Assembly (NCBI GenBank): GCA_902527045.1
Contig: CABZNL010000007.1
Location: 1 to 61,892 of the forward strand
Reading direction: 5' to 3'
From: an uncultured Alphaproteobacteria bacterium
Lineage (GTDB): Bacteria > Pseudomonadota > Alphaproteobacteria > HIMB59
Length of the DNA: 61,892 nucleotides
In this document: in pieces, positions 9,817 to 60,426 of the stretch
Layout of the letters: every line of letters starts with the position of its first letter
Position numbering within the stretch: the first letter of the stretch is position 1
Notes under the pieces: model-generated
The model's input: only the letters and a program-made list of their open reading frames with translations
Database searches by the model: none
Told to the model about the DNA's origin: nothing
Made by a program: the position numbers and the translations under genes

Positions 9817-10731
9817 ATGGAATATGACTTAATTATTCCTTTTTTCAATGATCAAAAATACTTAAAAAGATTTCAAAAACAAATTAATCATCAAAAACTT
9901 CTTCCAAAAAATCTAATTTTTATAGATGATTGCAATAAAGATAAAAATTTAAAAAAAAAAATTAGAGAAATTATTAATAACAAAATTAAAGTAATCTACA
10001 TTAGAAATAATTTTAATTTAGGTCCTGTAAAATCAATTAACAAAGGATTTAAATATTTAAAGAGTGAATACTTTAGGATATCTTCCACTGATGATTTTAT
10101 GGACTCTGAGCTTGCTCTCAAGAGCTTGAAAGTTTTAAATAAGTATAAAAAAAAACCATATATATTTTCTGATCTTGTTTGTTTTAATGAGAAAACACAA
10201 AAAGAAATTAAAATAAGATATAGTTTTTTGAAAAAGGAAAGTTATAGCTCTAAAGAAGTAATTGATATTTTTAGTAAATACCAATTTAAAATTTATCATA
10301 ATAGTATTTTTTTTAGAAAGAATTTTTTTCTTAAAAATAATATTTTTAACGACATGTACGGAGATAGATGTGATATGCTTAATCTATATCATATCTCATT
10401 CAATTATGGTTTTTGTTATACACCTGGTTATCTATCAAAATATGTTTATAGAAAAGGTCAATTTGGACAAATAAAAAAAAACAACTACTTGTTTAATGAA
10501 ATTGAAATGATACATAAATTTAATAAAAAATTATTTCTTAATTTAATTAAAGCTAACTTACTCTATGAAATTTCTCCAAAAGCATTGCTAGAAAATTTTA
10601 AATATAAAAAACAAATTATAAATCTTAATTGGCTTATAAGATCTGTAAAATACCACTCATGGAAAAAAATTAGATTTTTTCTTCCTAGTTGGCTAATATC
10701 TGTTACTTTTAGAATTACAACTAAGTTATGA
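9817..10731 (+). CDS. Family 2 glycosyltransferase
   Basis: A 304-residue GT-A glycosyltransferase. It opens with YDLIIPFFNDQKYL, followed by FIDDCNKD and the metal-binding-like STDDFM at about residue 90. The middle matches the nucleotide-sugar fold; the C-terminus is basic. The stop codon overlaps the next start as ATGA, so translation is probably coupled to the E1 alpha gene. Expected to act at the cytoplasmic face on a lipid-linked intermediate. Donor and acceptor are unknown. Confidence 0.82.
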   Translation: MEYDLIIPFFNDQKYLKRFQKQINHQKLLPKNLIFIDDCNKDKNLKKKIREIINNKIKVIYIRNNFNLGPVKSINKGFKYLKSEYFRISSTDDFMDSELALKSLKVLNKYKKKPYIFSDLVCFNEKTQKEIKIRYSFLKKESYSSKEVIDIFSKYQFKIYHNSIFFRKNFFLKNNIFNDMYGDRCDMLNLYHISFNYGFCYTPGYLSKYVYRKGQFGQIKKNNYLFNEIEMIHKFNKKLFLNLIKANLLYEISPKALLENFKYKKQIINLNWLIRSVKYHSWKKIRFFLPSWLISVTFRITTKL

Positions 10732-40204: not shown

Positions 40205-41203
40205 ATGTCAATTTTAAGATTATTTACTGCGCTCTTCCTTGCATTAGGGATAACCTCCATTTCTTCTAATGTTAAAGCTGGGGCACACTGCAGCAATGTT
40301 ACAATTGCAGAGATGAACTGGGCTTCTGCTCAGGTCATCGCACACATCGATGCTGTTCTCTTAAGGGGGCTTGGATGTGAAGTGGAATTAATTCCTGGAG
40401 ATACTATGCCAACAGCAACATCTCTAGTTGAAAAAGGTGAGCCTTCAATAGCTCCTGAATTATGGTCTCAAAATATTAAGCCAATCTTAGATCCTGCTGA
40501 AGCTGAGGGTTTAATCAAAAACGTTGGTAAAGTGTTTGAGGATGGTGGTGAAGAAGCAATTTGGATACCAACATACATAGCTCAAGAACATGGTATTGTT
40601 ACTATCGATGATGCTCTTGCAAGACCTGATTTATTCCCACACCCAGAAGATTCAAGTGTAGCTGGTTTCTACGGATGTCCTGCTGGTTGGAACTGTCAGA
40701 TTACTACAACTCAAATGTTTAAAGCATTTGGCATGGCTGATGCTGGATTTGAATTTATTGATCCAGGTTCAGGTGGAGCTCTTTCAGGTGCAATGGGTGA
40801 GGCATACAACAAAGGTGAAGGTTGGATGGGTTACTATTGGGGCCCAACAGCTATCCTTGGTAAGTATGATATGACAAAACTTGATGAAGGTGTTGAACAT
40901 GACAAAGAAACTTGGCTTTCAGAAATCAATGATCTCAATGTAGAAGCTCCAGGCAGAAATAAATATCCTGCCTCAGTTGTGGAAACTTATGTTGGTAAAG
41001 ATATGCTAGGAAACTCTGAAGTTATGGGTTACTTGGAGAAAAGAAGCTTTAATAATACTCTTCTAAGTCAAATTCTTGCATGGAAAGAAGAAAACCAAGC
41101 AGAAGCTGAAGAGACTGCTTACTACTTCTTAGAGAATTTTTCTGGTGTTTGGGGAGAATGGGTACCATTTGACCAAAAACTAGCAATTCAAAACTCATTA
41201 TAA
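40205..41203 (+). CDS. proX: Glycine betaine/onium ABC transporter, substrate-binding protein
   Basis: A 332-residue periplasmic protein with a signal peptide (residues 1-25, ending in VKA-GA). It belongs to the ProX/OpuAC family: Trp87 (ELW), Trp162 (GWNC) and Trp207/Trp212 (GWMGYYW) lie where ProX proteins build their aromatic cage around a trimethylammonium group. The ligand may be glycine betaine, proline betaine or DMSP. It is preceded by a strong Shine-Dalgarno and followed by a stable hairpin, so it is likely made in excess over the membrane subunits. Codon use suggests high expression. Confidence 0.92.
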   Translation: MSILRLFTALFLALGITSISSNVKAGAHCSNVTIAEMNWASAQVIAHIDAVLLRGLGCEVELIPGDTMPTATSLVEKGEPSIAPELWSQNIKPILDPAEAEGLIKNVGKVFEDGGEEAIWIPTYIAQEHGIVTIDDALARPDLFPHPEDSSVAGFYGCPAGWNCQITTTQMFKAFGMADAGFEFIDPGSGGALSGAMGEAYNKGEGWMGYYWGPTAILGKYDMTKLDEGVEHDKETWLSEINDLNVEAPGRNKYPASVVETYVGKDMLGNSEVMGYLEKRSFNNTLLSQILAWKEENQAEAEETAYYFLENFSGVWGEWVPFDQKLAIQNSL

Positions 41204-41216
41204 TCATTAAAGAATT

Positions 41217-41248
41217 AAACCTGGGGATATCCTCCCCAGGTTTTTTTT
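41217..41248 (+). terminator. Terminator-like hairpin between proX and proW
   Basis: CCTGGGGA at 41220-41227 pairs with TCCCCAGG at 41233-41240, extended by A-T pairs and followed by a run of eight T. It lies 14 bases after the proX stop and 19 before the proW start. Partial termination here would give more ProX than ProW or ProV, as is common in binding-protein-dependent importers. Confidence 0.88.
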
Positions 41249-41266
41249 GAAAAGAATTTAATATAT

Positions 41267-42157
41267 ATGTCTAATTTCTTAACAGATTTTCCAGAAATGC
41301 CTAACAAGCAGTTTCGCGAATTCAAAAAAGGCGTTGATGCTAGCTATAAAGATTTTGCTCGTGAATGGGGTGATTTAATTGATGCAATGTTTGATCCTCT
41401 TCTTAAAATGCTAGTTTTTTTTGAAAAAACCCTCATTGCTACACCCTGGCCAATTTTTATGATTGTTCTTTTAGGTCTTACCTATTGGGGAAGTAGGAGT
41501 ATTAAGTTAGTTATTGGAACTTTTTTAGCTTTCGTGTTTATAGGGTACTTTAGGATGTGGGATGAAACAATGAGCACTATTGCTATCATACTTACTTCTG
41601 TGATCATGTCCGTAGTAATAGGCCTACCGACAGGAATAGCAATGTCTAGATCTGATCGTACGCAAAGTATAGTTACCCCAATTTTAGATGTCATGCAAAC
41701 AATGCCACCATTTGTGTATTTGATACCTATCGTAATGTTAATGGGCATTGGAAAGATACCAGGATTGATTGCTGTTGTAATCTATGCAATACCTCCTCTA
41801 ATTAGATTAACTAATTTAGGTATTCGAGAAGTGGATAAAGAGGCTTTAGAAGCTGCAGATGCATTTGGTGCTACCAAAAAACAAAAGCTATATCAGGTTC
41901 AACTCCCTTTAGCTTTACCAACAATTTTTGCTGGTATTAATCAGACTATCATGATGGCTTTAGCGATGGTTATTATTGCTTCAATGATAGGCGTGAAAGG
42001 CTTAGGCCAACCAGTCTTACAATCTATATATAATCAATATTTTACCAAAGGTGTATTATATGGACTTGCCATAGTAATCGTCGCTATTGTTTTTGACAGA
42101 GTATCTCAGTCTTATGGTCAACGTATTCAAAAACATCGCTCCGGTAAAATAGTTTAA
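41267..42157 (+). CDS. proW: Glycine betaine/onium ABC transporter, permease
   Basis: A 296-residue permease. After an N-terminal amphipathic part it has about six helices; the EAA loop that contacts the ATPase is EALEAADAFGATKKQKLYQVQLPLA. QTMPPFVYLIPIVMLMGIGKIPG and AMVIIASMIGVKGLGQPV are typical of ProW/OpuAB. Stop and proV start are directly adjacent. It forms the membrane channel of the betaine importer. Confidence 0.95.
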   Translation: MSNFLTDFPEMPNKQFREFKKGVDASYKDFAREWGDLIDAMFDPLLKMLVFFEKTLIATPWPIFMIVLLGLTYWGSRSIKLVIGTFLAFVFIGYFRMWDETMSTIAIILTSVIMSVVIGLPTGIAMSRSDRTQSIVTPILDVMQTMPPFVYLIPIVMLMGIGKIPGLIAVVIYAIPPLIRLTNLGIREVDKEALEAADAFGATKKQKLYQVQLPLALPTIFAGINQTIMMALAMVIIASMIGVKGLGQPVLQSIYNQYFTKGVLYGLAIVIVAIVFDRVSQSYGQRIQKHRSGKIV

Positions 42158-43180
42158 ATGTCAGAAGCAAAAATACAGATTAAAAATCTTTATAAAATCT
42201 TTGGAAAAAATCCCAGAGGTGCAATGGAGCATGTTAAAAATGGAGTTGGAAAAGATGAATTGCTGGAAAAACATAATCATGTTCTAGGACTAAAAGATAT
42301 TAACCTCGATATTCAAGCTAAATCTGTTCAGGTTGTAATGGGATTATCTGGATCTGGAAAATCAACTTTAATTAGACATATCAATAGGTTAATTGAACCC
42401 ACAGATGGAAGTGTAACTGTCGACGGTGATGAAGTTTTAAAAATGAATGAAGAGGAACTTCGAAATTTTAGAAGAAGCAAAACCGCGATGGTCTTCCAAC
42501 GTTTTGCCTTACTTCCCCATAAAACTGTTTTGCAAAATACCATTTTTGGTCTTCATATTCAGAATATTAGTGAAGAAGATGCAAACAAAAGTGCGCGTCG
42601 TTGGATTGAAAGAGTTGGTTTATCAGGTTATGAAAATAAATATCCTCAACATTTATCAGGTGGAATGCAACAACGCGTGGGTTTAGCAAGGGCCTTAACT
42701 AATGATGGTGATATTCTTTTAATGGATGAAGCTTTTAGTGCACTGGATCCTTTAATCCGTAAAGATATGCAAGATATACTTTTAGAACTTCAAGACGAAC
42801 TTCATAAAACAGTTGTTTTTATTACACATGACCTTGACGAGGCTTTAAAAATTGGAGATCGTATTGCTATTTTAAAAGATGGAATTATGGATCAAGAGGG
42901 AATACCTGCAGAGATTTTGCTAAATCCAAAAACAAAGTATGTAAAAGACTTCGTAGAAGATGTAAATAGAGCAAGAGTGATTAAAGCAAAACATATAATG
43001 AGTGAAATTAATGGCCAAGATCTTAGTGGGGCTATGCCAATAGACCAAGATGATTTTATTGATCGTTTTATTGATAAAGTGATTTCAGATAAACCCGATA
43101 ACTTAGTCATTCAAGACAAAGACAAAAAAAATGTAGGTTTTTTATCTACTAAAAAACTTTCTGAGATCTTAAAAAGATAA
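42158..43180 (+). CDS. proV: Glycine betaine/onium ABC transporter, ATPase
   Basis: A 340-residue ATPase. Walker A is GLSGSGKST, the signature is LSGGMQQRVGLARAL, Walker B is ILLMDEAFSALDPL and the switch His is in FITHDLDEAL. A C-terminal regulatory stretch of about 85 residues is present but lacks two complete CBS motifs. ATP hydrolysis drives uptake through ProW. The gene starts right after the proW stop and is followed three bases later by the aldehyde dehydrogenase, suggesting that import and catabolism share one transcript. Confidence 0.95.
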   Translation: MSEAKIQIKNLYKIFGKNPRGAMEHVKNGVGKDELLEKHNHVLGLKDINLDIQAKSVQVVMGLSGSGKSTLIRHINRLIEPTDGSVTVDGDEVLKMNEEELRNFRRSKTAMVFQRFALLPHKTVLQNTIFGLHIQNISEEDANKSARRWIERVGLSGYENKYPQHLSGGMQQRVGLARALTNDGDILLMDEAFSALDPLIRKDMQDILLELQDELHKTVVFITHDLDEALKIGDRIAILKDGIMDQEGIPAEILLNPKTKYVKDFVEDVNRARVIKAKHIMSEINGQDLSGAMPIDQDDFIDRFIDKVISDKPDNLVIQDKDKKNVGFLSTKKLSEILKR

Positions 43181-44630: not shown

Positions 44631-45599
44631 ATGAATTTTCGAGTAGACAATCTTCAGTATTGTAACTGGACTAGAGAAATATTTGAGATTAATCACGAAG
44701 CTCAATTAGATGCTGTTCACGCCACGATTTGTTATCACGAAGACTACGACGAAGTTCTCTCTAATATAAAGACTTGGAATACTTATTTTGAAAAAAACAA
44801 AGATTTAATTTTTCAAGGCAAAAGTTCAAAAGATATTGCTAAAGCTAAGCTAGAGAATAAGACTGCTATATTTTATGGCTTACAAAATTGCTCTCCTATT
44901 GAAGGTAATATTGATTATGTAGAGTCTCTAAAAGAATTGGGCGTACTATTCATGCAACTTACTTACAATAATCAATCATTACTAGCCACTGGGTGTTATG
45001 AAAAACGTGATAGTGGTATTACTCGAATGGGAAAAGAGGTTATTAAAGAGATGAATCGGGTAAATATGATTATAGATATGTCCCACTCAGCAGAATTTTC
45101 AACTTTAGAAGCAATTGAAATTTCTATTCAGCCAATTGTTGTAAGTCATGCCAATCCTTTATTCTGGCATCAGGGGCTTCGAAATAAATCAGATGAAGTA
45201 TTAAAAGCATTAAACGATAGTGGCGGAATGATCGGGTTCTCATTATATCCTCACCATCTTAAAGATACTTCAAATTGTACTCTTCAATCATTTTGTGAGA
45301 TGATTGCAGAAAGTACAAAAAAAATATCTGTTAAGCAAATTGGTATTGGCTCAGATCTTTGTATTCATCATCCTGATAGCATAGTTGAATGGATGAGAAA
45401 TGGTACTTGGACAAAGACAAAAGATTTTGGTGAAGGAACAGCCAATAACGCAGGTTTTCCTCCTCAGCCCTCATGGTTTAAAGATGCTAGAGGTTTTGAA
45501 AATCTCCATAAAGGTTTAAAAGATGTTGGCTTCAGCGAAGATGAGACGCACGACATCTTGGGTAATAATTGGTACAATTTTTATAAGAAATTTGATTGA
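44631..45599 (+). CDS. M19 (membrane dipeptidase)-like protein
   Basis: A 322-residue TIM-barrel protein of the M19 family. MSHS and SHANP hold metal-binding His residues, and GIGSDLCIHH gives the final Asp. The N-terminal HxD metal motif of classical dipeptidases is not seen; the equivalent region reads VDNLQYCNWTREIFE. Related proteins stand next to dimethylglycine/betaine catabolic genes in pseudomonads, where their role is unclear. Hydrolysis of an unusual amide or lactone is possible. The stop overlaps the next start as TGATG. Confidence 0.78.
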   Translation: MNFRVDNLQYCNWTREIFEINHEAQLDAVHATICYHEDYDEVLSNIKTWNTYFEKNKDLIFQGKSSKDIAKAKLENKTAIFYGLQNCSPIEGNIDYVESLKELGVLFMQLTYNNQSLLATGCYEKRDSGITRMGKEVIKEMNRVNMIIDMSHSAEFSTLEAIEISIQPIVVSHANPLFWHQGLRNKSDEVLKALNDSGGMIGFSLYPHHLKDTSNCTLQSFCEMIAESTKKISVKQIGIGSDLCIHHPDSIVEWMRNGTWTKTKDFGEGTANNAGFPPQPSWFKDARGFENLHKGLKDVGFSEDETHDILGNNWYNFYKKFD

Positions 45600-47254
45600 T
45601 GCAAATAGATTTAAGAAAACCGGAATTAGTCATGAAATTAGACCGATTAGGCTCCTTTCATCAATCTAAATTGTCTTTTCTAAGAAGTTTTATAAGAGAA
45701 TTTAAGAATTGGGAATTTAAAACTCATGAGTTCAACTTAGATAATCGAGGCTTTGGTTATATTGTTTATGTTGTAAATAATGGGCAAAAACAATACTCCC
45801 TAATTTGCTTTTCAAATCATATTGAAGATAGTGAAAGATCTGATCGAGTTATAGCTACGAAATGGGATGCATCTTTTGTTTTATTTGATGGAGTTCCAGC
45901 TAAAGAGGATATTGAAAGGCTTAAAGCTAATGTTCCTCTCCAAGAGCAGGGAAGAGTGAGTGAAAAGGAACTTTGCCTATCTCGAGCTAACAAATCAGTA
46001 CGTGTTTTTGAACATGTAGTAGATAAACTGTCTAAAGGTATACAACCTGATACTAAGCTTCTATACAGCGTGGGTTATCTTTATCGAACTACTGCTGTTT
46101 ATGGCTCTGGAAAATTTGGATTAGCTGATCGAATTAAAATTCAAGATAGAGAAGAGCTTAAAGGGCCATTCAGATTGGAGATGATGCTTGTATACCTTGC
46201 AAGACAATTTACTTTCGATGTCGTCAACCATGTGGCTCACTTTCGCTCTCCAAGCAAGGCAATTAAACTTAGCGAAGATATTGCTAGAAATTTAGGTATT
46301 GGTAATTCTACAGGTTTGGGAATGGCACCCTTTATAGTAAATCATCCAGCTTTATTAAATCAATGGATCATTGCAAAAGAAAAAGCATTAAAAGCCATTC
46401 GATCAATTTTATCTGTTAGTCAAAAAGATAAAGATATTTTTGAGTCATATCTCTCTGCTATTCAAGAGAATATTAAATATTGGAATACGGAAAGTGATTA
46501 CCAAAAGAAAAAAAATAAACAGCTTTTAAAGGACTTAGATAGTTTTCAAAATTTTTATTCAACATATACCTTGAAAAATTATTTTTGGAATTCTATTTAC
46601 GAGTGGACAGAAGCAAATACTCAATCTGAATGCTGTGAGTTTATTGTTTCATTAATGATGGAAGTTTATCCAGATATTGTAGAACCTCTCAGTTATGAAA
46701 TGTCTATAAATGAAGATAAGTACTTTGATATTGATACATCAAAGACAATAGGTGAGGTGTGTAAATTAATTGAAAATCAATATACCTGGTTGCTAAATAT
46801 TGATTTTGATAACAAAGAAAATATTTTTAATTTTTGGTATTACTCAAAAAATAAACAAGAGCCTCGAATGTCAGATAGATTTTCTGAGGAAGGCTCAGAA
46901 TTAGAGCTACCCCTAGCTATAGCAAGAGATATAAGTGAACTTTATGGTGATTTAAAATCTTATGATTTAAACAGAGACTTAGGCTATTATTTGTTAAAAA
47001 GTCAAGAATATCGACATATATTAAGAAGAGTTCTGGTATGTGAAAAACTGCCCTACTCAGAAATTCAAGATAACACTATCTCAAAAACTTTAATCCCAGT
47101 TGATATGATACGACTAAAGTTATCTTTTTTTGGTGCGACACGATTTGATCCCCGTTCTGATCGTTGGGTAAGAATTACTATGTATCAAGGTGCTCCCTTA
47201 ATGAAAGAAATAAGAACATCTAACGATACGTGGTCTTACAAAAAGATAGCTTAA
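45599..47254 (+). CDS. Large conserved-looking protein of unknown function
   Basis: A 551-residue soluble protein from the ATG at 45599, which overlaps the upstream TGA; a TTG three bases earlier is also in frame. I cannot name the family. It has no signal or membrane helix. Blocks that look conserved include RTTAVYGSGKFGLADR, MLVYLARQFTFDVVNHVAHFRS and FGATRFDPRSDRWVR. It sits between the M19 protein and a DUF3726-like protein, sharing one base with the latter. A catabolic enzyme or regulator for the imported onium compound is the contextual guess. Confidence 0.65.
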   Translation: MQIDLRKPELVMKLDRLGSFHQSKLSFLRSFIREFKNWEFKTHEFNLDNRGFGYIVYVVNNGQKQYSLICFSNHIEDSERSDRVIATKWDASFVLFDGVPAKEDIERLKANVPLQEQGRVSEKELCLSRANKSVRVFEHVVDKLSKGIQPDTKLLYSVGYLYRTTAVYGSGKFGLADRIKIQDREELKGPFRLEMMLVYLARQFTFDVVNHVAHFRSPSKAIKLSEDIARNLGIGNSTGLGMAPFIVNHPALLNQWIIAKEKALKAIRSILSVSQKDKDIFESYLSAIQENIKYWNTESDYQKKKNKQLLKDLDSFQNFYSTYTLKNYFWNSIYEWTEANTQSECCEFIVSLMMEVYPDIVEPLSYEMSINEDKYFDIDTSKTIGEVCKLIENQYTWLLNIDFDNKENIFNFWYYSKNKQEPRMSDRFSEEGSELELPLAIARDISELYGDLKSYDLNRDLGYYLLKSQEYRHILRRVLVCEKLPYSEIQDNTISKTLIPVDMIRLKLSFFGATRFDPRSDRWVRITMYQGAPLMKEIRTSNDTWSYKKIA

Positions 47255-47850
47255 TGCACTCCTTATATGAAATTGAAACAACAATTAAGAGATCATCGCG
47301 TGCTAAGGGATTAAGTTGGGGCGTTTCTGAGGAGGCTGGAAAAGCAGTAAGAGTATTAGAACAATCTAAATTTCAAGGATTAGAAAGTTTTAAAAGACTT
47401 ATCGATTTAGGTCTAACTAAGCTTAATAAACTTTTGGATGTAGGTCAATCTGATACAAGCAACCTTTGCCCCATACATTTTGGAATTTTTTTTCTTGACC
47501 AATCTCATAATAAAGATCTACATCGTATTCATAAGTTCAAGAATATAAATGAGCCCCTATTAATTCTTCCTTTTTTATCTAAGTCAGCGAAAAATAATTT
47601 ACTCTATTTTGATTTTAAGTCATCAGATTTAAATTTTACAATAAGTCCTGGGGATATTTTTTTTATAGATAAAAATGTTGTTCCTAATAATTTATCAGAT
47701 TTTTCATTAACCATTTCATCTCAAAGGAAAAGCTTATATGACCAAAGTTCTTGGGATTATCTATATAAACTATCACTTGAAACTTTTGTTGAAGAGACAG
47801 AAGAGAAGAAGATTTCTGGAGCTGGTGCTGGTTTAACAGATAATGATTAG
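47254..47850 (+). CDS. DUF3726-like protein
   Basis: A 198-residue protein starting at the ATG that overlaps the upstream TAA (TAATG); a GTG at 47230 would add eight residues but lies inside the previous gene. The N-terminus (SLYEIETTIKRSSRAKGLSWGVSEEAGKAVR) and the C-terminal SGAGAGLTDND resemble DUF3726. Function is unknown. It overlaps the exporter gene by eight bases. Adjacency with the 551-residue protein suggests that the two work together. Confidence 0.72.
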   Translation: MHSLYEIETTIKRSSRAKGLSWGVSEEAGKAVRVLEQSKFQGLESFKRLIDLGLTKLNKLLDVGQSDTSNLCPIHFGIFFLDQSHNKDLHRIHKFKNINEPLLILPFLSKSAKNNLLYFDFKSSDLNFTISPGDIFFIDKNVVPNNLSDFSLTISSQRKSLYDQSSWDYLYKLSLETFVEETEEKKISGAGAGLTDND

Positions 47851-49479: not shown

Positions 49480-50586
49480 ATGAACCATTTAATCGCTAAA
49501 AGTGCTCGACTTCGTTCCACGCCCTATACCAAAAGAATAGAAGAGTATGGGGTTCAATCCTACACAGTTTACAATCATATGATTTTACCTGCATCTTTTA
49601 AAGGGGTAGAGGAAGACTGTCTTCATCTTAAAAACAATGTCCAGGTTTGGGATGTATCGGTAGAAAGGCAAGTCCAATTTAAAGGTCCTGATGCTGCAAA
49701 GCTTACACAGCTTATTACTTGTAGAGATCTATCTAATGCAAAAGATTATCTTTGTTACTATGCGCCAATTATTGACGAAAAAGGAAAAATTCTTAATGAT
49801 CCATTAATTATGAAAGTTGGTGATGATACTTGGTGGTTATCCATAGCCGACTCAGATATCTTATTATATGCAAAGGGTATTACCATTGGTATGAATTTAG
49901 ATGTCGAAATTACAGAACCCAATGTCAATATATTAGCTGTACAAGGACCTAAATCTTTTGATTTGATGGAGAGAGTCTTTGGTGAAGAAATAAAAAAATT
50001 AAAATTTTTTAATTTCAAAAGATATGAATTTCAAGGCCATAAATTGTTAATCGCAAGATCAGGTTGGTCGAAACAAGGTGGATTTGAAATTTATGTTGAT
50101 GATGATCAAATTGGTCTAAATCTTTATGATAGCTTGATTAATAATGGTGAAGATTTAAATGTCAGACCAGGCTGTCCAAATTTAATTGAAAGGATTGAGG
50201 GAGGTCTGCTTTCTTTTGGGAATGATATGACCATGGAAGATACTCCCCTAGAATGTGGCCTAAATCCTTTTGTTTCATTTAATCCAGATATACATTACCT
50301 AGGAAAATCAATACTAGAAAAACAAAATCGAGAAGGAGTACAAAGGTCCTTAATTGGTTTAAAACTCAAGCTTGATGATTTAACTATAACAAAATATTTA
50401 CCTATCCAATTAGATGGCCAGATTATTGGTGAATTAAGATCTGGTTGTTTTAGCCCTGATTTTGGTTGTTGTCTTGGTATCGCAATGATACAAACCAAGT
50501 TTCAAAATTTTAATGAAGTTAAGACACTGTTGATTGATAATCTAGAAGTGCAATCGCAGATGACGACAATACCTTTTTCAAAATAA
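49480..50586 (+). CDS. dmdA: Dimethylsulfoniopropionate demethylase
   Basis: A 368-residue GcvT-fold enzyme with the motif set of DmdA: RLRSTPYTKRIEEYGVQSYT, YNHMILP, VWDVSVERQV, KLTQLITCRDLS, SGWSKQGGFEIY and CPNLIERIEGG. DmdA moves a methyl group from DMSP to tetrahydrofolate, giving methylmercaptopropionate; SAR11 and marine roseobacters use it for carbon and reduced sulfur. The length is normal. It is followed by an MFS transporter and a RidA protein. Downstream dmdB, dmdC and dmdD are not in the window. A paralogue lies at 56531-57682. Confidence 0.9.
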   Translation: MNHLIAKSARLRSTPYTKRIEEYGVQSYTVYNHMILPASFKGVEEDCLHLKNNVQVWDVSVERQVQFKGPDAAKLTQLITCRDLSNAKDYLCYYAPIIDEKGKILNDPLIMKVGDDTWWLSIADSDILLYAKGITIGMNLDVEITEPNVNILAVQGPKSFDLMERVFGEEIKKLKFFNFKRYEFQGHKLLIARSGWSKQGGFEIYVDDDQIGLNLYDSLINNGEDLNVRPGCPNLIERIEGGLLSFGNDMTMEDTPLECGLNPFVSFNPDIHYLGKSILEKQNREGVQRSLIGLKLKLDDLTITKYLPIQLDGQIIGELRSGCFSPDFGCCLGIAMIQTKFQNFNEVKTLLIDNLEVQSQMTTIPFSK

Positions 50587-50624: not shown

Positions 50625-51890
50625 GTGTTTGGAACAATTTTAAATTCATGGGCACTTTTTAGTGGCTTTGGGCTAATAATGATAGCTCATACTCTCCAAG
50701 GAACTTTACTAAACATCAATTCTGTTTTTTTTAATTTTTCAGACTTTGAGATTGGTTATGTATTTACAGGATATTTCATTGGATTTCTGTTTAGCTCAAT
50801 TCAATGTCCTAAACTAATTAAAAATGTTGGGCATATCAGAGTATTTGCAGCATTCGCATCATTAGGATCGATAGCTATCTTATTACATTGGATTTTTGTC
50901 GATCCAGTTCTTTGGTTAATCTTTAGAATGATTACTGGTTTCTCCTATGCTGCCATTTATATAGTTTGTGAGAGCTGGTTAAATGATCGGGCAGATAACA
51001 AAACAAGAGGCCAATTAATTGGCTTCTATATGATTGTTTTATATATTTCTACGAGTATCGGAGTAATGTTAATAAATATAGGTACAACTACAGAAGCTCA
51101 TCTTTACATTCTATCATCTTTGTTGATATCCTTTGCTTTGGTTCCTATATTGCTTACTAAGAAACCTGCTCCTGAATTTACTACACCTAAATTTTTAAGT
51201 CTTAAAGACTTATATAATAAATCACCTATGGCTTTTGTAGGATCTTTTACAATTGGAATGATTTACAGTGCTTTATTCGGATTAATTGCAGTTTTTGGTG
51301 CTAAAATTGGTTTTAGTATATTTCAAATTTCAATTTTAGTTTTTGTAAATATGTTTATTGGAGCTATTTTTCAGTATCCTATTGGAAAAATCTCAGATCG
51401 TTATGATCGGAGAACTATTTTATTTGTACTAAATTTGATAGCTATTGGCTCTTTAATACTGGCCTTTATATTTGGTTCATTTTCATTTTATGTTCTATTA
51501 CTATTTATTGGTATTCATTCTGCTGTTTCATTACCTTATTACGCTGTCGTTATTTCACATATGAACGATTTCTTGGAAAAGGACGAAATTGTTTCAGCCA
51601 GCTCAACTTTAACACTTGTTAATGCTTTAGGTATGGTAGCAGGTCCTATGCTAGCCTCAGGTTTTATGGCTTACTTTGGACCCTATGGTTTTTTTATTTA
51701 TATGATAGTTGTGTATTCTTTAGTCGCTCCTTATAATTATTTTAGAATTAGAGTTGGAAGAACTAGTGATATCTATGAAGAAAATACACCTTCAATGATT
51801 GTCCCTAGAAATACATCTTCAATTGGGATGCAATTAGCTACAGAACAGATTATAAATAAAATTGAAGAGGAAGAGGAAGTCTCACATTGA
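50625..51890 (+). CDS. MFS transporter (YcaD-like)
   Basis: A 421-residue transporter with 12 helices, starting at GTG. NINSVFFNFSDFEIG, RMITGFSYAAIYIVCESWLND and GKISDRYDRRTILF are typical of the YcaD branch of MFS carriers. The C-terminus carries an acidic tail (EEEEEV). It lies 38 bases after dmdA and overlaps the RidA gene by four bases (TTGA). Substrate unknown; uptake or release of a compound in the DMSP/betaine pathways is plausible from context. Confidence 0.86.
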   Translation: MFGTILNSWALFSGFGLIMIAHTLQGTLLNINSVFFNFSDFEIGYVFTGYFIGFLFSSIQCPKLIKNVGHIRVFAAFASLGSIAILLHWIFVDPVLWLIFRMITGFSYAAIYIVCESWLNDRADNKTRGQLIGFYMIVLYISTSIGVMLINIGTTTEAHLYILSSLLISFALVPILLTKKPAPEFTTPKFLSLKDLYNKSPMAFVGSFTIGMIYSALFGLIAVFGAKIGFSIFQISILVFVNMFIGAIFQYPIGKISDRYDRRTILFVLNLIAIGSLILAFIFGSFSFYVLLLFIGIHSAVSLPYYAVVISHMNDFLEKDEIVSASSTLTLVNALGMVAGPMLASGFMAYFGPYGFFIYMIVVYSLVAPYNYFRIRVGRTSDIYEENTPSMIVPRNTSSIGMQLATEQIINKIEEEEEVSH

Positions 51891-52348
51891 ATATAGAGAA
51901 TAAATTACAAGAGTTAGGAATTGTTTTACCCAATCCTGCAAAACCAGCTGGAAGTTACAAACCTTGTGTAATAGTCGATAATACTGCTTATATTTCAGGC
52001 CAAGGTCCTCTCCTTGAGGATGGAAGTTTTGCAAAAGGTGTTGTAGGTAAAGATTTGAGCTTGGAATTAGCTAAAGAACATGCACAAAAATGTGGTTTGG
52101 CAATATTATCTGCCTTAAAAAATGAAATTAAAGACCTAGACAGAGTAGAACAATTAATCAAGTTGACAGGTTTTGTAAACTGTTTAGATAATTTCACTCA
52201 ACAGCCTCAGGTTATTAATGGTTGTTCAGATTTAATGCAAAAAATCTTTGGTGAAAAGGGGATACATGCTCGTGCGGCGGTTGGGGTGAATTCTCTTCCT
52301 TTAGGCTTCTCAGTTGAAATTGAAGCTATATTTAAATTAACTCCTTAA
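51887..52348 (+). CDS. RidA/YjgF-family protein
   Basis: A 153-residue RidA-family protein. AYISGQGPLLEDGS and the C-terminal GIHARAAVGVNSLPLG, with the conserved Arg, match the family; the longer length resembles the YjgH/atzoic subgroups and not classical RidA. RidA proteins hydrolyse reactive enamine/imine intermediates. The start TTG overlaps the upstream TGA. It may clear intermediates of amine catabolism here. Confidence 0.87.
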   Translation: MNIENKLQELGIVLPNPAKPAGSYKPCVIVDNTAYISGQGPLLEDGSFAKGVVGKDLSLELAKEHAQKCGLAILSALKNEIKDLDRVEQLIKLTGFVNCLDNFTQQPQVINGCSDLMQKIFGEKGIHARAAVGVNSLPLGFSVEIEAIFKLTP

Positions 52349-52416: not shown

Positions 52417-53547
52417 ATGAAGATTCAGTTTTCAAGTGACTCATTAAAAGTGACACACCAAAATAATGATTATGAATTACATCCTATTTGGCTAAGAGAA
52501 AGATTATCAGGTTATGACTATGTCGACAAAGATACAAATCAAAGACTATACGAACCCTCTTCCATTAAATTAGATTTACAAATTACAACAGCAAAAATTT
52601 TAGAAGAAAAACTTGATATTGAATTCAATGATGGGGCTAAAGGGAAATATAATATTCAAGATCTTCTTACAGAATTTGATAACGATAAAAACAAACGTGG
52701 CCCTTTGCCTAAAAGACTTCTTTGGAACTCAGATTTAAAAGTATTTCCAAGTGTAGAGTTTGAAGAAAATATGGCTGAGAAAGAGTCGATGTATAGACTT
52801 TTAGAGGATTTTTATAAATATGGTTTTGTAATTATAAAAAACGTTCCAGCAAAAGACCAATATTTACTCAAATTTGTGAGATCTATAGGTCCTGTTAAAG
52901 TGACTAACTTTGGAGAGTATTTTGATGTGATGTCCAAACCGAACCCCAATGATTTAGCTTATAAGCCTATTGCTCTTCCTCCACATACGGACAATCCCTA
53001 TAGAAAGCCAGCTGCGCCTGGAATTCAATTTTTACATTGTCTAAAAAATGAGGTCAGTGGTGGTTTTTCGACTCTAGTAGATGGTTTTGCAGTTGCTGAG
53101 TATATTAAGGTCAATTACCCTGAAGCTTTTGAGTCTTTGACTAAAACTAATCTTAGATATCAATTTGAAGACAAAGATATTATTTTAGAAAATTGGGGAG
53201 AGCTTATTGAGTTGGATAAAGAGGGAGACTACAAACAAGTAAGGTATAGCACAAGGGTTGATTATGTTCCGCCAATTGATCGAAAAAAACTTACAAATTT
53301 TTATAAAGCTAGAAAACTTCTAAGTGATTTATATTCCTCATCAGATTTTGAGATTAAGTTTAAGCTTAAAACCGGTGACGTTATGATGTTTGATAATCAT
53401 AGACTGCTTCATGGAAGAACCGCATACGATGCTAATGAAGGTGCCAGACACCTCCAGGGTTGTTATCTAGATTTTGACTCAACAGATGGCAAACTTAGGC
53501 ATTTGCATAGAAAATATGTACAAGATGGATTAAAAAATTTTGGTTGA
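52417..53547 (+). CDS. Gamma-butyrobetaine-dioxygenase-like Fe(II)/2-oxoglutarate oxygenase (TmpA candidate)
   Basis: A 376-residue two-domain enzyme. Residues 1-95 form the DUF971-like N-terminal domain (YELHPIWLRERLSGYDY); residues 110-370 the TauD/TfdA domain, with iron ligands His190 and Asp192 (PHTDNPY) and His332 in NHRLLHGR. The Cys cluster that binds zinc in gamma-butyrobetaine hydroxylase after WLR is absent. The HD-domain oxygenase candidate follows with an eight-base overlap. In the TmpA/TmpB pathway such an enzyme hydroxylates 2-(trimethylamino)ethylphosphonate next to phosphorus. Carnitine synthesis from gamma-butyrobetaine is the alternative. Confidence 0.82.
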   Translation: MKIQFSSDSLKVTHQNNDYELHPIWLRERLSGYDYVDKDTNQRLYEPSSIKLDLQITTAKILEEKLDIEFNDGAKGKYNIQDLLTEFDNDKNKRGPLPKRLLWNSDLKVFPSVEFEENMAEKESMYRLLEDFYKYGFVIIKNVPAKDQYLLKFVRSIGPVKVTNFGEYFDVMSKPNPNDLAYKPIALPPHTDNPYRKPAAPGIQFLHCLKNEVSGGFSTLVDGFAVAEYIKVNYPEAFESLTKTNLRYQFEDKDIILENWGELIELDKEGDYKQVRYSTRVDYVPPIDRKKLTNFYKARKLLSDLYSSSDFEIKFKLKTGDVMMFDNHRLLHGRTAYDANEGARHLQGCYLDFDSTDGKLRHLHRKYVQDGLKNFG

Positions 53548-54145
53548 TAAGAATGTAAAATTTAAACATATGAAAGATGGTGATAAAGAGGATTATTTAT
53601 TACTTCAAGAGTATGAGGAAAAATATGTCTCTTTAACTTATGAGAGAATTATCGAAGAACTATCAAGACAAGGACAAAATACTATGGAGGGCTATAAAAT
53701 TTCTAGACTAGATCATGGACTTCAATCAGCAACAAGAGCTTATAACGATGGGGCTGATATTGATTGGATTGTTGGAACATTACTTCATGATATAGGCGAT
53801 GGACTTGCTCCTCAAAATCACGATAGATTTTCTGCTGAGGTCATAAGACCTTATGTTAGAGAAGAAGTAACTTGGGTAGTTGAACATCATGGAATTTTTC
53901 AAATGATTTATTACGCCCATCATTATGGTTGGGATAGAAATGCGAGGGATAAATTTAAAGATAACATTTATTTTCAAACATGCGCTGAATTCTGCGAAAG
54001 ATGGGATCAAAAATCTTTTGACCCAGAATATGAGAATAAAGATCTAGATTTTTTTAAACCTATGATAAAAGAGATTTTTAATAGACCTCCATATAAAGAG
54101 GAATTCATTAAAAAAAACAAAGTTTTGGGATTACCAAAAATTTAA
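53540..54145 (+). CDS. HD-domain protein, candidate mixed-valent diiron oxygenase (TmpB/PhnZ-like)
   Basis: A 201-residue HD protein. Metal ligands line up as His59 (RLDHGLQSA), His83-Asp84 (LLHDIGD), His94 (NHDRF), His116 or 117 (VEHHGIF) and Asp156 (RWDQ), the spacing used by PhnZ-type diiron oxygenases. PhnZ has Tyr24 and Glu27 ten and seven residues before its first His; here those positions are Met49 and Tyr52, so the substrate pocket differs. The TTG start overlaps the dioxygenase stop region; an ATG at 53570 is possible. With the upstream enzyme it could cleave a hydroxyphosphonate to betaine and phosphate. A plain phosphohydrolase is the alternative. Confidence 0.75.
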   Translation: MVDKNVKFKHMKDGDKEDYLLLQEYEEKYVSLTYERIIEELSRQGQNTMEGYKISRLDHGLQSATRAYNDGADIDWIVGTLLHDIGDGLAPQNHDRFSAEVIRPYVREEVTWVVEHHGIFQMIYYAHHYGWDRNARDKFKDNIYFQTCAEFCERWDQKSFDPEYENKDLDFFKPMIKEIFNRPPYKEEFIKKNKVLGLPKI

Positions 54146-54186: not shown

Positions 54187-54711
54187 ATGAGAATTCTCTT
54201 GATAACCTTAAGTGTTTTACTCACAAATATAGGAAGTATTATGGCGCAAAACTTACATAATTTTAGTATTCAAGATATTGATGGTAATCAAATTAATTTA
54301 GATAAATTTAAAGGTAAACCTGTTCTTCTTGTGAATACTGCTAGTCGATGTGGTTTCACAAAGCAGTATGCTAACCTGTCCAATCTTCATCGTGAATATT
54401 TAGATAAAAATTTAATAATTATTGGGACTCCCTCTAACAGCTTTCGACAAGAGTTGGATGATGAAAAGGATGTTAAAGAATTTTGTTTAGTTAACTATGA
54501 TACAAAATTTATCATTTCTGAAATCATTGATGTGAACGGAGAGGACGCCCATCCAATATATAGCTGGATGATGTCAGCATATAATGAAACTCCAAAATGG
54601 AATTTTTATAAATATCTTTTTGATGGTGAAGGAAATTTAGTTAAAAGTTGGTCTTCAATGACTAAACCTGATAGTTCAAAAATTACAGATTTAATAGATG
54701 ACTTAATATAA
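54187..54711 (+). CDS. Glutathione peroxidase-like, exported
   Basis: A 174-residue thioredoxin-fold peroxidase with an N-terminal signal peptide (cleavage near MAQ, residue 20). NTASRCGFTKQY holds the peroxidatic Cys; the partner motif FPCNQF is changed to TPSNSF, so the resolving Cys is missing; WNFYKYLFDG has the conserved Trp and Asn. It probably reduces peroxides in the periplasm. It lies 41 bases after the HD gene and ends at a strong terminator. Without the resolving Cys it may need an external thiol. Confidence 0.9.
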   Translation: MRILLITLSVLLTNIGSIMAQNLHNFSIQDIDGNQINLDKFKGKPVLLVNTASRCGFTKQYANLSNLHREYLDKNLIIIGTPSNSFRQELDDEKDVKEFCLVNYDTKFIISEIIDVNGEDAHPIYSWMMSAYNETPKWNFYKYLFDGEGNLVKSWSSMTKPDSSKITDLIDDLI

Positions 54712-56530: not shown

Positions 56531-57682
56531 TCAAGAACTTGGAAGCGCTTTTTTAGGATCAAAGAAAGGCTTTTCTACTATGATCGCATCTCTGAGAACC
56601 CCGTTAATTTCAACTAATAATTTCATTCCTATTTCAATGTAATTTTTATCAACCATAGCCAATGCTATATTTTTTTCTAATCGTGGTGAAAATACTGCGG
56701 AAGTTACTTTTCCAATGATTTTATCACCACAGAATATTTCCCAAAATATTGTGTTTGGGCCTGTCAAAGAATCTCCCTCTATTTCCAAACCAATTTGCTG
56801 ACGTTTTATACCTTTTTTTTGGATTTCAATAAGTGCTTTTTTACCAATGAAATTAACATCACTATCTAAAGATACCAGTCTTTCAAGCCCCATCTCAAAT
56901 GGGTTAGTGTGTATATCTGCATCTGCGTGGTATGACAACATACCTCCTTCGATACGGCGAATGCTTGATGTGTGACCAGGCTGAAGTCCATATTCATTCC
57001 CTGCCATCATGATCATTTCCCATAATTTATCTCCCTGAGTTCCGTCTCGTAAAAATAATTCATATCCAAGTTCTGTAGACCATCCAGTGCGAGATACAAC
57101 TAAGGGAATACCATCTAATTCTAATTCTTTGAGCCAGTAATATTTTAAATCTCTTATGCTTTCTCCAAATAATTTCACCATAATCTCTCTTGACTTTGGT
57201 CCCTGCAGCTGAAGAGGTGAAACATCTGGTTCATTGATGTTAACATTTAGCCCTGAATTTACTGCAACACCTTGAGCCCATAGTAAAATATCGCTATCAG
57301 ATAGAGATAGCCAAAAATGATTTTCATCTAAACGAAGTAAGACAGGGTCATTGAGTATCCCCCCTTTTTCGTTGGTAATTAGAACATATTTACACTGCCC
57401 AATAGATAATTTGCTAAGATCACGCGGTGTAAGTAGTTGAATAAACTGAAATGCATCAGGACCAGTTATCTCAACTTGTCTTTCAACTGCTACATCACAT
57501 AAAATTGCATCATTTACTAAATTCCAAAAATTTTTCTCAGGGTCACCAAAATCTCTGGGGATATACATGTGATTGTAAACTGAAAAGCCAGTAGCCCCCC
57601 ATCGAACTGTAGCATCAAAAAATGGAGATTTTCTTATTTGAGTACCAAATCCAAAATTTTTTTCTGTATTTTTACTTTGCAT
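56531..57682 (-). CDS. DmdA-like GcvT-family methyltransferase (paralogue)
   Basis: A 383-residue GcvT-fold protein related to DmdA: VYNHMYIPRDFG, LCDVAVERQVEI, LTPRDLSKL, SRTGWSTELGYELF and SIRRIEGG. It differs from the true dmdA at 49480 at several motif positions (GWSTELG instead of GWSKQGG), so it may demethylate another substrate such as dimethylglycine or sarcosine using tetrahydrofolate. The ATG at 57682 is chosen because GGAAGGAG lies eight bases upstream and the start overlaps the previous stop (TGATG); a TTG at 57700 is in frame but precedes that site. Confidence 0.82.
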   Translation of the reverse strand: MQSKNTEKNFGFGTQIRKSPFFDATVRWGATGFSVYNHMYIPRDFGDPEKNFWNLVNDAILCDVAVERQVEITGPDAFQFIQLLTPRDLSKLSIGQCKYVLITNEKGGILNDPVLLRLDENHFWLSLSDSDILLWAQGVAVNSGLNVNINEPDVSPLQLQGPKSREIMVKLFGESIRDLKYYWLKELELDGIPLVVSRTGWSTELGYELFLRDGTQGDKLWEMIMMAGNEYGLQPGHTSSIRRIEGGMLSYHADADIHTNPFEMGLERLVSLDSDVNFIGKKALIEIQKKGIKRQQIGLEIEGDSLTGPNTIFWEIFCGDKIIGKVTSAVFSPRLEKNIALAMVDKNYIEIGMKLLVEINGVLRDAIIVEKPFFDPKKALPSS

Positions 57683-58236
57683 CAAAGAGGCTCCTTCCAA
57701 TCAACTAAAAAAATTGCTTCATTTCTACGAAGATTGGGAAGTGTAAAAGGACCATCATATGTAGCTTTAATAGCGGGACCTAAGACTTTTATATCATCGG
57801 CATTTAAATCGCTTTTTAAAATTTCTCTATGTTTGTGAAAATTTTTATCAGAGGCAAAACCTGAATATCTTATTACTGCAAAATATCCTGGTTCTATTGA
57901 TGAAATTTTTATTGATTTATCTGAGGGTAGAGGTATCTCATTTTGTTGAAATCTCTTGGGTAAGTAAAATTGCATAACAAACTGATTTTCAATTTCTGTA
58001 ACGTTAACTGGTGTAGTCATTTCAATTTTTTGACTTTGTTTGTTATTGCCTGATATATATTCAAAGAGTTTCTGAAATCCATTATTTTGACTAGAGTATT
58101 GTGTTTCTACTATTAAACGTTCCTCATAATATCGAATTTCATAAGTATCCGTTTGATAAACAACCTTATAGGGAGACTCACTGTAGGCCATCAAGTTTTG
58201 TACCATGAGTAACAACAATAGTAAGTATCTAATCAT
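57682..58236 (-). CDS. Exported SOUL family heme-binding protein
   Basis: A 184-residue protein from the ATG at 58236, directly followed by a signal peptide (IRYLLLLLLMVQNLMA). The SOUL domain shows YEIRYYEERLIVET, a FQKLFEYISGNNK segment, IEMTTPVNV and PGYFAVIRYSGFA. SOUL proteins bind heme or related ligands weakly; the bacterial role is unsettled. It overlaps the SH3 gene by eight bases and the DmdA-like gene by one. A GTG at 58266 would put ten residues before the signal and is less likely. Confidence 0.88.
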   Translation of the reverse strand: MIRYLLLLLLMVQNLMAYSESPYKVVYQTDTYEIRYYEERLIVETQYSSQNNGFQKLFEYISGNNKQSQKIEMTTPVNVTEIENQFVMQFYLPKRFQQNEIPLPSDKSIKISSIEPGYFAVIRYSGFASDKNFHKHREILKSDLNADDIKVLGPAIKATYDGPFTLPNLRRNEAIFLVDWKEPL

Positions 58237-58767: not shown

Positions 58768-60426
58768 TTATCTTTGAGAATTCTGCCAGTTTGGATGAAT
58801 ATAGGGTTGTAGATTAGATGGAGCTAAAAGAGGTTTTCCTAAAATATGATCTGATGCTTTTTCACCAGTCATTATGGATGGTGCATTGAGATTTCCATTA
58901 CAAATTTGAGGAAAAATTGAGGAGTCTGCTAGATATAAATTTGAAAAACCCTTAACTCTGCAGTCATTTTGAACAACTGATGAAGGATCATTTTCTTCTC
59001 CTATCTTACAAGTGCCACATGGATGGTAAGCACTTTCACAGTTATTTTTTATAAATTCATCAAGTCCCTCATCTGATACAACATCATCTCCGGGTTGAAT
59101 TTCACTTCCTTTATAAAGAGCTAATGCATCTTGGTTAAGAATTTCTCTCGAAAGTCTGAGTGATTTCCTAAAGTTTGGAAAATCATCTTCATGAGACATA
59201 TAATTAAATTTTATTAAAGGTGCCTCAAAAGGATTGCTAGACTTTAACTTTACAAATCCTCGAGATTTTGAACGCATGGGTCCCACATGTAATTGAAAAC
59301 CATGTCCTTTACTTGGTGATTTGCCATCATATCTTATTGCAACGGGGAGAAAATGAAATTGAATATCAGGATATGGAATATTTTTATCTGAACGAATAAA
59401 TCCAAGTGTTTCAAATTGGTTTGTCGAGCCTGGCCCACTTTTAAGAAACATCCATTGCATACCGATTAGCAATTTAGAAAATGGGTTTAAGTACTTGTTA
59501 AGTGTTACTGGTCGTAAACACTTCACTTGAAAATAAACTTCTAAATGATCTTGTAAATTCTTACCAACACCAGGTAAGTTTTTAATAACCTTAATTCCTA
59601 AGTTATTTAAATCATTTCCCTCTCCAATTCCTGACCTTTGGAGAATAGTTGGACTATTTATAGCGCCAGCTGATAAAACAACTCCGATATTGGCGTTAAA
59701 AACTTTTTTTTGGCCTTGATGAAATACTTCCACCCCTTTAGCCTTGTCTTCACTAAATATTATTTTATCGACAAAAACTTTAGTAATAAGTTGTACATTT
59801 TTCTTTGCTAATGCGGGTTTCAAATAAGCTTTAGCTGTTGAAAAACGTGAACCTTTCCAAACATTCATATCAGCAGGCCCAAAGCCCTCCTGCCGAAAAC
59901 CATTATAATCTTCAGTATATGTATACCCTGCTTGTTCAGTTGCTTTTACAAACGCGTCATGTAAAGGATTATCTCTTTTGCCATGAGTTATATTTAATGG
60001 GCCTGATTTCCCCCTAAATTCAGAATTTCCTCCATGGCTTGCTTCCATTCTTTGAAAATATGGAAGAACATCTGGATAATCCCAACCTTTCGCTCCGCTT
60101 TCTGCCCACTGATTATAGTCACCAGCATTTCCTCTTACATAAATCATTCCATTAATTGAAGAGGATCCTCCAATAACTTTACCTCTAGGGCAGGCTAAAG
60201 ACCTTCCGTTTAATGCTTGCTCTGGTTCAGCTTTATAACCCCAATCGAACTTATCCATGTTCATAGGGTAAGAAAGAGCGGCAGGCATTTGAATAAATGG
60301 ACTCTTATCCAGTCCACCAAATTCCAAAACTAGAATTTTTAACTTTGGGTTCTCCCCAAGTCTGTATGCTATTGTCGATCCTGCCGATCCAGAACCAATT
60401 ACAATATAATCAGGATTTTCAAACAT
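58768..60426 (-). CDS. betA: GMC oxidoreductase, choline dehydrogenase-like
   Basis: A 552-residue flavoprotein of the glucose-methanol-choline family. GSGSAGSTIAYRL binds FAD, GGSSSINGMIYVRG and SGAINSPTILQRSGIG are the two GMC signatures, and the catalytic His is in SAYHPCGTCKIG. Length and motifs fit BetA, which oxidises choline to betaine aldehyde. The aldehyde dehydrogenase at 43184 could complete the route to glycine betaine. Other alcohol substrates are possible within this family. It starts the run that includes the SH3, SOUL and DmdA-like genes. Confidence 0.85.
   Translation of the reverse strand: MFENPDYIVIGSGSAGSTIAYRLGENPKLKILVLEFGGLDKSPFIQMPAALSYPMNMDKFDWGYKAEPEQALNGRSLACPRGKVIGGSSSINGMIYVRGNAGDYNQWAESGAKGWDYPDVLPYFQRMEASHGGNSEFRGKSGPLNITHGKRDNPLHDAFVKATEQAGYTYTEDYNGFRQEGFGPADMNVWKGSRFSTAKAYLKPALAKKNVQLITKVFVDKIIFSEDKAKGVEVFHQGQKKVFNANIGVVLSAGAINSPTILQRSGIGEGNDLNNLGIKVIKNLPGVGKNLQDHLEVYFQVKCLRPVTLNKYLNPFSKLLIGMQWMFLKSGPGSTNQFETLGFIRSDKNIPYPDIQFHFLPVAIRYDGKSPSKGHGFQLHVGPMRSKSRGFVKLKSSNPFEAPLIKFNYMSHEDDFPNFRKSLRLSREILNQDALALYKGSEIQPGDDVVSDEGLDEFIKNNCESAYHPCGTCKIGEENDPSSVVQNDCRVKGFSNLYLADSSIFPQICNGNLNAPSIMTGEKASDHILGKPLLAPSNLQPYIHPNWQNSQR

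What the first reader, a model, noticed from the sequence alone, without database searches (positions are those of the whole stretch)
52417..54145. TmpA/TmpB-like oxygenase pair: possible phosphonate-to-glycine-betaine route
A gamma-butyrobetaine-dioxygenase-like enzyme with an HxD...H iron site overlaps by eight bases an HD-domain protein whose metal ligands match PhnZ-type mixed-valent diiron oxygenases. The known TmpA/TmpB pair turns 2-(trimethylamino)ethylphosphonate into glycine betaine and phosphate. Here the pair lies in a region full of betaine and DMSP genes, which would use the product. The HD protein lacks the Tyr/Glu pair of PhnZ at the same positions (Met49 and Tyr52 instead), so it may act on a different onium phosphonate. 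In phosphate-poor ocean water this would be a valuable phosphorus source.
Basis: partly seen in the sequence, partly recalled or inferred. Interest (0 to 1): 0.85.

Follow-up and report, generated by a model that had tools for sequence, protein, structure and literature searches.

The report
Paired oxygenases for onium breakdown
Two neighbouring genes in a tiny ocean bacterium encode a hydroxylase and an iron-based bond-cutting enzyme that resemble a known phosphonate-degrading pair but have lost its substrate-binding signature, so they probably break down a different nitrogen- or sulfur-onium nutrient by cutting a carbon-carbon bond.

Summary
The pair is real: a TauD/GBBH-like Fe(II)/2OG hydroxylase (52417-53547) overlaps by 8 bp an HD protein (53540-54145) with all six HD-oxygenase metal ligands. 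The genome is a marine HIMB59-order alphaproteobacterium.

The TmpA/TmpB reading is not supported as stated. The hydroxylase falls in its own clade (20 sequences, 100/99 support), apart from TmpA (including the solved 6NPB) and from GBBH-like enzymes. All 20 carry Asp where BBOX and TmpA have Asn191 (0 of 44 others do). Asp there is the trimethyllysine-hydroxylase state, proposed to hold an alpha-ammonium. The HD family is distantly homologous to PhnZ/TmpB but lacks every signature of that family beyond the metal site.

Yet the two are coupled. They are adjacent in six or more lineages, and all 11 genomes outside the order with this hydroxylase also carry the HD protein (p=7e-7). In five HIMB59 genomes an enolase-superfamily gene sits exactly where HD sits.

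Best reading: a hydroxylase plus HD-oxygenase module that hydroxylates an onium compound, probably an onium amino acid, then cleaves C-C, feeding the betaine/carnitine pool. The substrate is unproven. A phosphonate substrate is now the less likely rival.

The parts
52417..53547 (+). Fe(II)/2-oxoglutarate hydroxylase, TauD/GBBH superfamily, separate 'W' clade; Fe ligands H190, D192, H332; Asp179 in place of BBOX Asn191; Ser278 in place of Asn292
53540..54145 (+). HD-domain protein with an HD-oxygenase-type six-ligand site (H59, H83, D84, H94, H117, D156); TTG start, 8-bp overlap with the hydroxylase gene
51887..52348 (+). Rid (YjgF) family protein directly upstream; candidate imine/enamine hydrolase of the same operon
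50625..51890 (+). MFS transporter, same strand, conserved in the locus; candidate uptake system
49480..50586 (+). DMSP demethylase DmdA (above NCBIfam cut-off), start of the conserved gene row
54187..54711 (+). glutathione peroxidase-like protein following HD; conserved in the locus
58768..60426 (-). choline dehydrogenase BetA (neighbourhood)
40205..43180 (+). OpuAC-type binding protein, permease and ProV-type ATPase of a betaine/choline-type ABC transporter (neighbourhood)

Best explanation
A two-step oxidative catabolic module that works like TmpA/TmpB or PhnY*/PhnZ but is a different sub-family of both enzymes. Step 1 (inferred from family and intact site): the TauD-type enzyme uses Fe(II), O2 and 2OG to hydroxylate a carbon of an onium compound held by a retained aromatic cage (F177, F181, Y194, Y366 in BBOX numbers). 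The Asp at 191 and the invariant R294 and D/E296 suggest that the other end is a zwitterionic amino-acid head rather than a carboxylate or phosphonate anion. Step 2 (inferred): the HD protein, as a diiron oxygenase of the PhnZ/TmpB/MIOX kind, cleaves the bond next to the new hydroxyl. This leaves an onium carboxylate and, if the head is an amino acid, a glyoxylate imine or carbinolamine that the upstream Rid protein could hydrolyse. The onium carboxylate would join the betaine/carnitine pool. In some HIMB59 genomes an enolase-superfamily enzyme takes the hydroxylated product instead. Shown: genes, homology, ligands, clade, substitutions, linkage and the HD/enolase swap. Inferred: every chemical step and the substrate class.
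For: Homology to HD oxygenases: an HMM of the HD family finds PhnZ (2e-12) and TmpB (5e-12) as the only credible solved relatives. Profile comparison with the TmpB/PhnZ family gives 99.5%, and six ligands are invariant. Coupling: adjacency in the HIMB59 genus, rhizobial-type G291/G360, G375, G152, G746, G690 and a Pseudomonas plasmid. Genomes with a W-clade hydroxylase carry the HD family in 11 of 11 cases outside the order, against 97 of 369 others, p=7e-7. Substrate shift: W clade 100/99; Asp191 in 20/20 against 0/44, D/E296 in 20/20 against 0/44. TMLH Asp231 aligns with BBOX Asn191 and is placed by the alpha-ammonium (PMC7764450); BBOX Asn292 bonds the GBB carboxylate (PMC12067446). In-place HD/enolase swap in 5 genomes with Rid upstream in all. 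Onium context: pair next to a choline binding protein, choline dehydrogenase and ALDH; GbcA-like and sarcosine-oxidase-like genes; carnitine dehydrogenase, BKACE and a choline-type binding protein. HD alone lies beside carnitine genes in the sister family.
Against: No biochemistry. The hydroxylase retains R294, shared with TmpA, and its best model is still TmpA. One clade member (L298) passes the TmpA cut-off, 423 against 400. The HD family is widespread (about 30% of sampled alphaproteobacteria) and mostly not adjacent to a hydroxylase, so it may have other roles. TMLH's second substrate residue (N334 = BBOX N292) is Ser here. Trimethyllysine-dioxygenase model scores are no higher than for TmpA or GBBH proteins. 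A PstS-like binding protein follows the pair in one rhizobial genus. Structure models were poor.
Confidence: 0.5

Rival explanations
1. TmpAB-like phosphonate route on another onium phosphonate: hydroxylation alpha to phosphorus, then oxidative C-P cleavage to phosphate and an onium carboxylate.
For: Gene-pair architecture and best curated model are those of TmpA; distant homology of HD to TmpB/PhnZ; R294 kept; L298 hydroxylase passes the TmpA cut-off; PstS-like gene after the pair in G360/G291.
Against: Separate clades; Asn191 and Asn292 lost; TmpB/PhnZ invariant K106, R156, S121, S124 and QGG and near-invariant H61 absent; in-place enolase swap; no phosphonate gene near the pair in the loci read.
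Confidence: 0.18
2. Gamma-butyrobetaine/carnitine route: the hydroxylase makes carnitine or an isomer, and HD cleaves C2-C3 to glycine betaine plus glycolate, bypassing carnitine dehydrogenase.
For: Linkage of HD, or of the pair, to carnitine catabolic genes; the product would be glycine betaine, for which GbcA-type genes are nearby.
Against: GBBH score 261 against 415; GBB-carboxylate residues replaced; the own genome has a separate GBBH-like gene beside carnitine dehydrogenase and a BKACE, and L298 has both a GBBH-like enzyme and the pair.
Confidence: 0.14
3. The HD protein is a phosphohydrolase or another hydrolase that merely lies next to a promiscuous TauD enzyme.
For: HD superfamily is mostly hydrolases (PMC8177086); the HD gene is usually not next to a hydroxylase.
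Against: Solved relatives are oxygenases only; significant co-occurrence and repeated adjacency with one hydroxylase clade.
Confidence: 0.12

Closest known systems
TmpA / TmpB (Leisingera caerulea)
   Same: Two-gene Fe/2OG hydroxylase plus HD diiron oxygenase; trimethylammonium-type cage; six HD ligands
   Different: Outside both curated cut-offs and both clades; Asp191/Ser292 in place of Asn/Asn; no YxxE, HVxxKRY, LSxxS, QGG or R(x2)D signatures
PhnY* / PhnZ
   Same: Same architecture; PhnZ is the best solved match to the HD family
   Different: Same missing signatures; hydroxylase from the GBBH branch, not PhnY*
Gamma-butyrobetaine hydroxylase (GBBH/BBOX)
   Same: Fold family, Fe/2OG residues, aromatic cage
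   Different: Carboxylate-binding Asn191/Asn292 replaced; separate clade; paired with HD
Trimethyllysine hydroxylase (TMLH)
   Same: Asp at the Asn191 position, proposed to bind the alpha-ammonium
   Different: Asn334 equivalent is Ser; model score 188 against 268; eukaryotic carnitine biosynthesis uses an aldolase as the next step, not an HD oxygenase
myo-Inositol oxygenase (MIOX)
   Same: HD diiron oxygenase cleaving C-C; one family member has a sub-threshold Pfam MIOX hit
   Different: Only remote similarity; acts without a hydroxylase partner

Membership tests
TmpA (2-trimethylaminoethylphosphonate dioxygenase) | NCBIfam NF049936 score of at least 400 bits | tested here: not met
   342 bits
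TmpA (2-trimethylaminoethylphosphonate dioxygenase) | Groups with characterised TmpA (6NPB) | tested here: not met
   Separate clades: TmpA 100/100, W+W2 100/99
TmpA (2-trimethylaminoethylphosphonate dioxygenase) | Asn at BBOX 191 and 292, conserved in TmpA | tested here: not met
   Asp and Ser
TmpA (2-trimethylaminoethylphosphonate dioxygenase) | HxD...H iron site and 2OG Arg | tested here: met
   H190, D192, H332, R344
TmpA (2-trimethylaminoethylphosphonate dioxygenase) | Hydroxylates TMAEP | not testable with these tools
   needs enzyme assay
TmpB / PhnZ | H...HD...H...H...D diiron ligands | tested here: met
   All six invariant in 36 members
TmpB / PhnZ | YxxE loop | tested here: not met
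   Met49 and Tyr52 at those positions; definition from PMC8177086
TmpB / PhnZ | Other family-invariant residues (HVxxKRY, LSxxS, QGG, R156 three before the ligand Asp) | tested here: not met
TmpB / PhnZ | NF049941 score of at least 300 bits | tested here: not met
   24 bits
HD mixed-valent diiron oxygenases (wider kind) | Closest solved homologues are HD oxygenases | tested here: met
   PhnZ 2e-12, TmpB 5e-12
HD mixed-valent diiron oxygenases (wider kind) | Mixed-valent Fe(II)/Fe(III) cofactor and O2-dependent cleavage | not testable with these tools
   needs EPR/Moessbauer and assay
GBBH | TIGR02409 score of at least 414.75 bits | tested here: not met
   261 bits
TMLH | Asp at the Asn191 position | tested here: met
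TMLH | Asn at the 292/334 position; TIGR02410 score of at least 268 bits | tested here: not met
   Ser; 188 bits

The most novel reading that the evidence does not exclude
The module oxidatively removes a two-carbon glycine unit from an onium amino acid. The hydroxylase beta-hydroxylates, for example, N6-trimethyllysine; the HD diiron oxygenase cleaves Calpha-Cbeta to gamma-butyrobetaine plus a glyoxylate imine (cleared by the Rid protein); gamma-butyrobetaine then enters the GBBH/carnitine dehydrogenase/BKACE route to glycine betaine present in the same genome. S-methylmethionine is an alternative substrate. To my knowledge it would be the first HD oxygenase to act on an amino acid and a new bacterial route from trimethyllysine to betaines.
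Probability: 0.2. Interest if true: 0.85.

Novelty: new variant of a known kind. Interest (0 to 1): 0.62.

Why it matters
Only a few HD oxygenases (MIOX, PhnZ types, TmpB, fungal PhoF) have known reactions. Here is a widespread sub-family, found in about 30% of sampled alphaproteobacteria, with intact diiron ligands but a different pocket. It comes with a partner enzyme, a recurrent gene pair and an in-place enzyme swap that together narrow the substrate class. If right, it adds a reaction to this enzyme kind and a nutrient route to abundant oligotrophic ocean bacteria. It also warns that such pairs should not be counted as phosphonate utilisation in marine surveys.

Tried and rejected
AlphaFold models from the permitted shallow alignments were poor (HD pLDDT 54, pTM 0.47; hydroxylase pLDDT 39, pTM 0.32). 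A PDB search with the HD model put PhnZ first, but at E 0.009 and TM 0.3, so it is not used as evidence. The genome-contig scan returned only the own genus. A phosphonate link through the HIMB59 phosphonate islands was checked: they hold C-P lyase and transporters, and the paper mentions no HD domain or TauD. 'The hydroxylase is a TMLH' was rejected: TMLH model scores are no higher than for TmpA or GBBH proteins. The original TmpB paper could not be read, and no held paper listing PhnZ phosphonate contacts was found, so the role of the missing TmpB/PhnZ residues is inferred from family invariance. Single-genome neighbours (arginase-like in G038, ureidoglycolate-lyase-like in G358) were noted but not used as proof.

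Full report
WHAT IS THERE. The two ORFs lie at the stated coordinates and overlap by 8 bases. The first is a TauD/GBBH-superfamily Fe(II)/2OG enzyme (PF02668, E 2e-43). The second is an HD-domain protein. The window belongs to a 1.15-Mb, 82%-complete genome. Its close relatives are marine single-cell genomes named 'uncultured Alphaproteobacteria' and 'Pelagibacteraceae'. One relative, G029, has a single contig of 1,410,127 bp, which from my own knowledge is the size of the isolate HIMB59; I therefore place the genome in the HIMB59 order.

NOT TmpA/TmpB PROPER. NCBIfam gives TmpA 342 bits (cut-off 400), GBBH 261 (cut-off 415) and TMLD 188 (cut-off 268) for the hydroxylase. It gives TmpB 24 bits (cut-off 300) for the HD protein. 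True TmpA/TmpB pairs above both cut-offs exist elsewhere in the class. In a 64-protein tree the characterised TmpA (6NPB) lies in a TmpA clade with 100/100 support. The window protein lies in a separate clade of 20 (100/99) with relatives from about a dozen families. The human GBBH reference sits on a long branch and is poorly placed, but bacterial GBBH-like proteins also fall outside the window's clade.

ACTIVE-SITE DIFFERENCES, HYDROXYLASE. In BBOX numbering the iron and 2OG residues are intact. The cage positions are F177, F181, Y194 and Y366. Position 191 is Asp in 20 of 20 clade members and in none of 44 others (39 Asn, 5 Ser). Position 292 is Ser in 19 of 20. R294 is Arg in 20 of 20 (also in 33 of 44 others), and position 296 is Asp or Glu in 20 of 20 and in none of 44 others. 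Literature read here: Asp231 of trimethyllysine hydroxylase is the counterpart of BBOX Asn191 and is placed near the alpha-ammonium of trimethyllysine (PMC7764450); BBOX Asn292 hydrogen-bonds the GBB carboxylate (PMC12067446). The end of the pocket away from the onium group has therefore changed from anion-binding towards cation-binding. Mapping these residues onto a bacterial enzyme of 30-35% identity is an inference.

ACTIVE-SITE DIFFERENCES, HD PROTEIN. A 36-member family alignment keeps H59, H83, D84, H94, H117 and D156 invariant, with D87, N93, F120, Q121 and Y124 as further strong positions. The TmpB/PhnZ family alignment has instead the invariant YxxE, K106, S121/S124, QGG and R156, and near-invariant H61. 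None of these is present in the window protein. The families are still homologous: hhalign 99.5%, and an HMM search of all PDB sequences finds only PhnZ (2e-12) and TmpB (5e-12) as credible hits. It is thus a distant sister sub-family of PhnZ/TmpB. That it is an oxygenase is inferred, not shown.

COUPLING. Gene order DmdA, MFS, Rid-like, hydroxylase, HD, GPx-like, AmtB is kept across the genus. Outside the order the pair is adjacent in G291/G360, G375, G152, G746, G690 and Pseudomonas aeruginosa plasmid pF045_1. The HD tree needs about five changes of the paired state, so the association was formed or lost several times. All 11 sampled genomes outside the order with a W-clade hydroxylase also carry the HD family, against 97 of 369 without it (Fisher 7e-7). 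In the sister family and in f89 the two genes are in the same genomes but apart.

THE SWAP. Among 34 loci of the genus plus the G029 locus, 29 have HD. Five (L225, L230, L241, L243, L254) have, in exactly the same slot, an enolase-superfamily protein of the mandelate-racemase/muconate-cycloisomerase type (Pfam MR_MLE; best NCBIfam similarities are sugar-acid dehydratases, with a weak one to cis-3-hydroxy-L-proline dehydratase). One locus (L222) ends before the slot. The simplest reading is that both act on the hydroxylase product. Enolase-superfamily enzymes remove a proton alpha to a carboxylate (general knowledge of the superfamily). That favours a hydroxy-carboxylate over a phosphonate, and a beta-hydroxy amino acid would fit the Rid protein upstream. 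This is inference.

CONTEXT. The pair or its HD sits with choline/betaine/carnitine genes. The Pseudomonas plasmid has a choline-binding protein, choline dehydrogenase and ALDH. G375 has GbcA-like, sarcosine-oxidase-like and choline-dehydrogenase-like genes. G690 has a choline-type binding protein, GbdR-like regulators, carnitine dehydrogenase, BKACE and a separate GBBH-like enzyme. The sister family has HD beside a thioesterase, BKACE and, in one of the loci read, carnitine dehydrogenase. The own genome has carnitine dehydrogenase adjacent to a GBBH-like gene on C16 and a BKACE on C6. So the module probably feeds onium carboxylates into this pool.

MECHANISM. Committed view: hydroxylation of an onium substrate, then HD-catalysed four-electron cleavage of the bond next to the hydroxyl. 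The leaving side is more likely carbon (an amino-acid head) than phosphorus. By analogy with PhnZ (R-CHOH-X + O2 gives R-COOH + HO-X; PMC8177086), trimethyllysine would give GBB plus a glyoxylate carbinolamine, and S-methylmethionine would give dimethylsulfonioacetate. Which substrate is real cannot be settled here.

VERDICT. Observation confirmed; interpretation half right. It is a new variant of the hydroxylase/HD-oxygenase pair, worth testing because the candidate substrates are few and the assay is simple.

Noticed in passing
L254:10365-11513 and the same slot in L225, L230, L241, L243: An enolase-superfamily gene replaces HD directly downstream of the hydroxylase in five HIMB59-genus genomes.
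   Followed up: yes
L298 (G690) 8792-9973 and L256 (G200) 7655-8815: W2-clade hydroxylases score at or near NCBIfam's TmpA cut-off (423 and 398 against 400) although they lie outside the TmpA clade and L298's partner is not TmpB; likely database misnaming.
   Followed up: partly
window 56531-57700 (-): A second GcvT/DmdA-like protein, just below the DmdA cut-off (384 against 410) and 38% identical to the first DmdA copy; may demethylate another onium compound.
   Followed up: no
L263:7105-7638 (G037, sister family): A TmpB/PhnZ-type HD protein (157 bits, below the TmpB cut-off) with YxxE-, KRY- and QGG-type residues in an AEGEAN-169-type genome, apart from the W-clade hydroxylase.
   Followed up: no
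L260:6791-7963 (G360; conserved in G291): A PstS-like binding protein follows the hydroxylase-HD pair in one rhizobial-type genus; the only hint of phosphate near the pair.
   Followed up: partly
L251:7573-9629 (G038): The W-clade hydroxylase overlaps by 4 bp an arginase-family (agmatinase-like) gene; a guanidino substrate is conceivable there.
   Followed up: no
L259:1040-2672 (G358): The W-clade hydroxylase is followed by a ureidoglycolate-lyase-like gene, an enzyme type that acts on glyoxylate carbinolamide compounds.
   Followed up: no
window 45596-47850: A 552-aa protein without any Pfam match and a DUF3726 protein lie between an M19 dipeptidase/ALDH/betaine-type ABC operon and the DmdA locus; conserved in relatives.
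   Followed up: no
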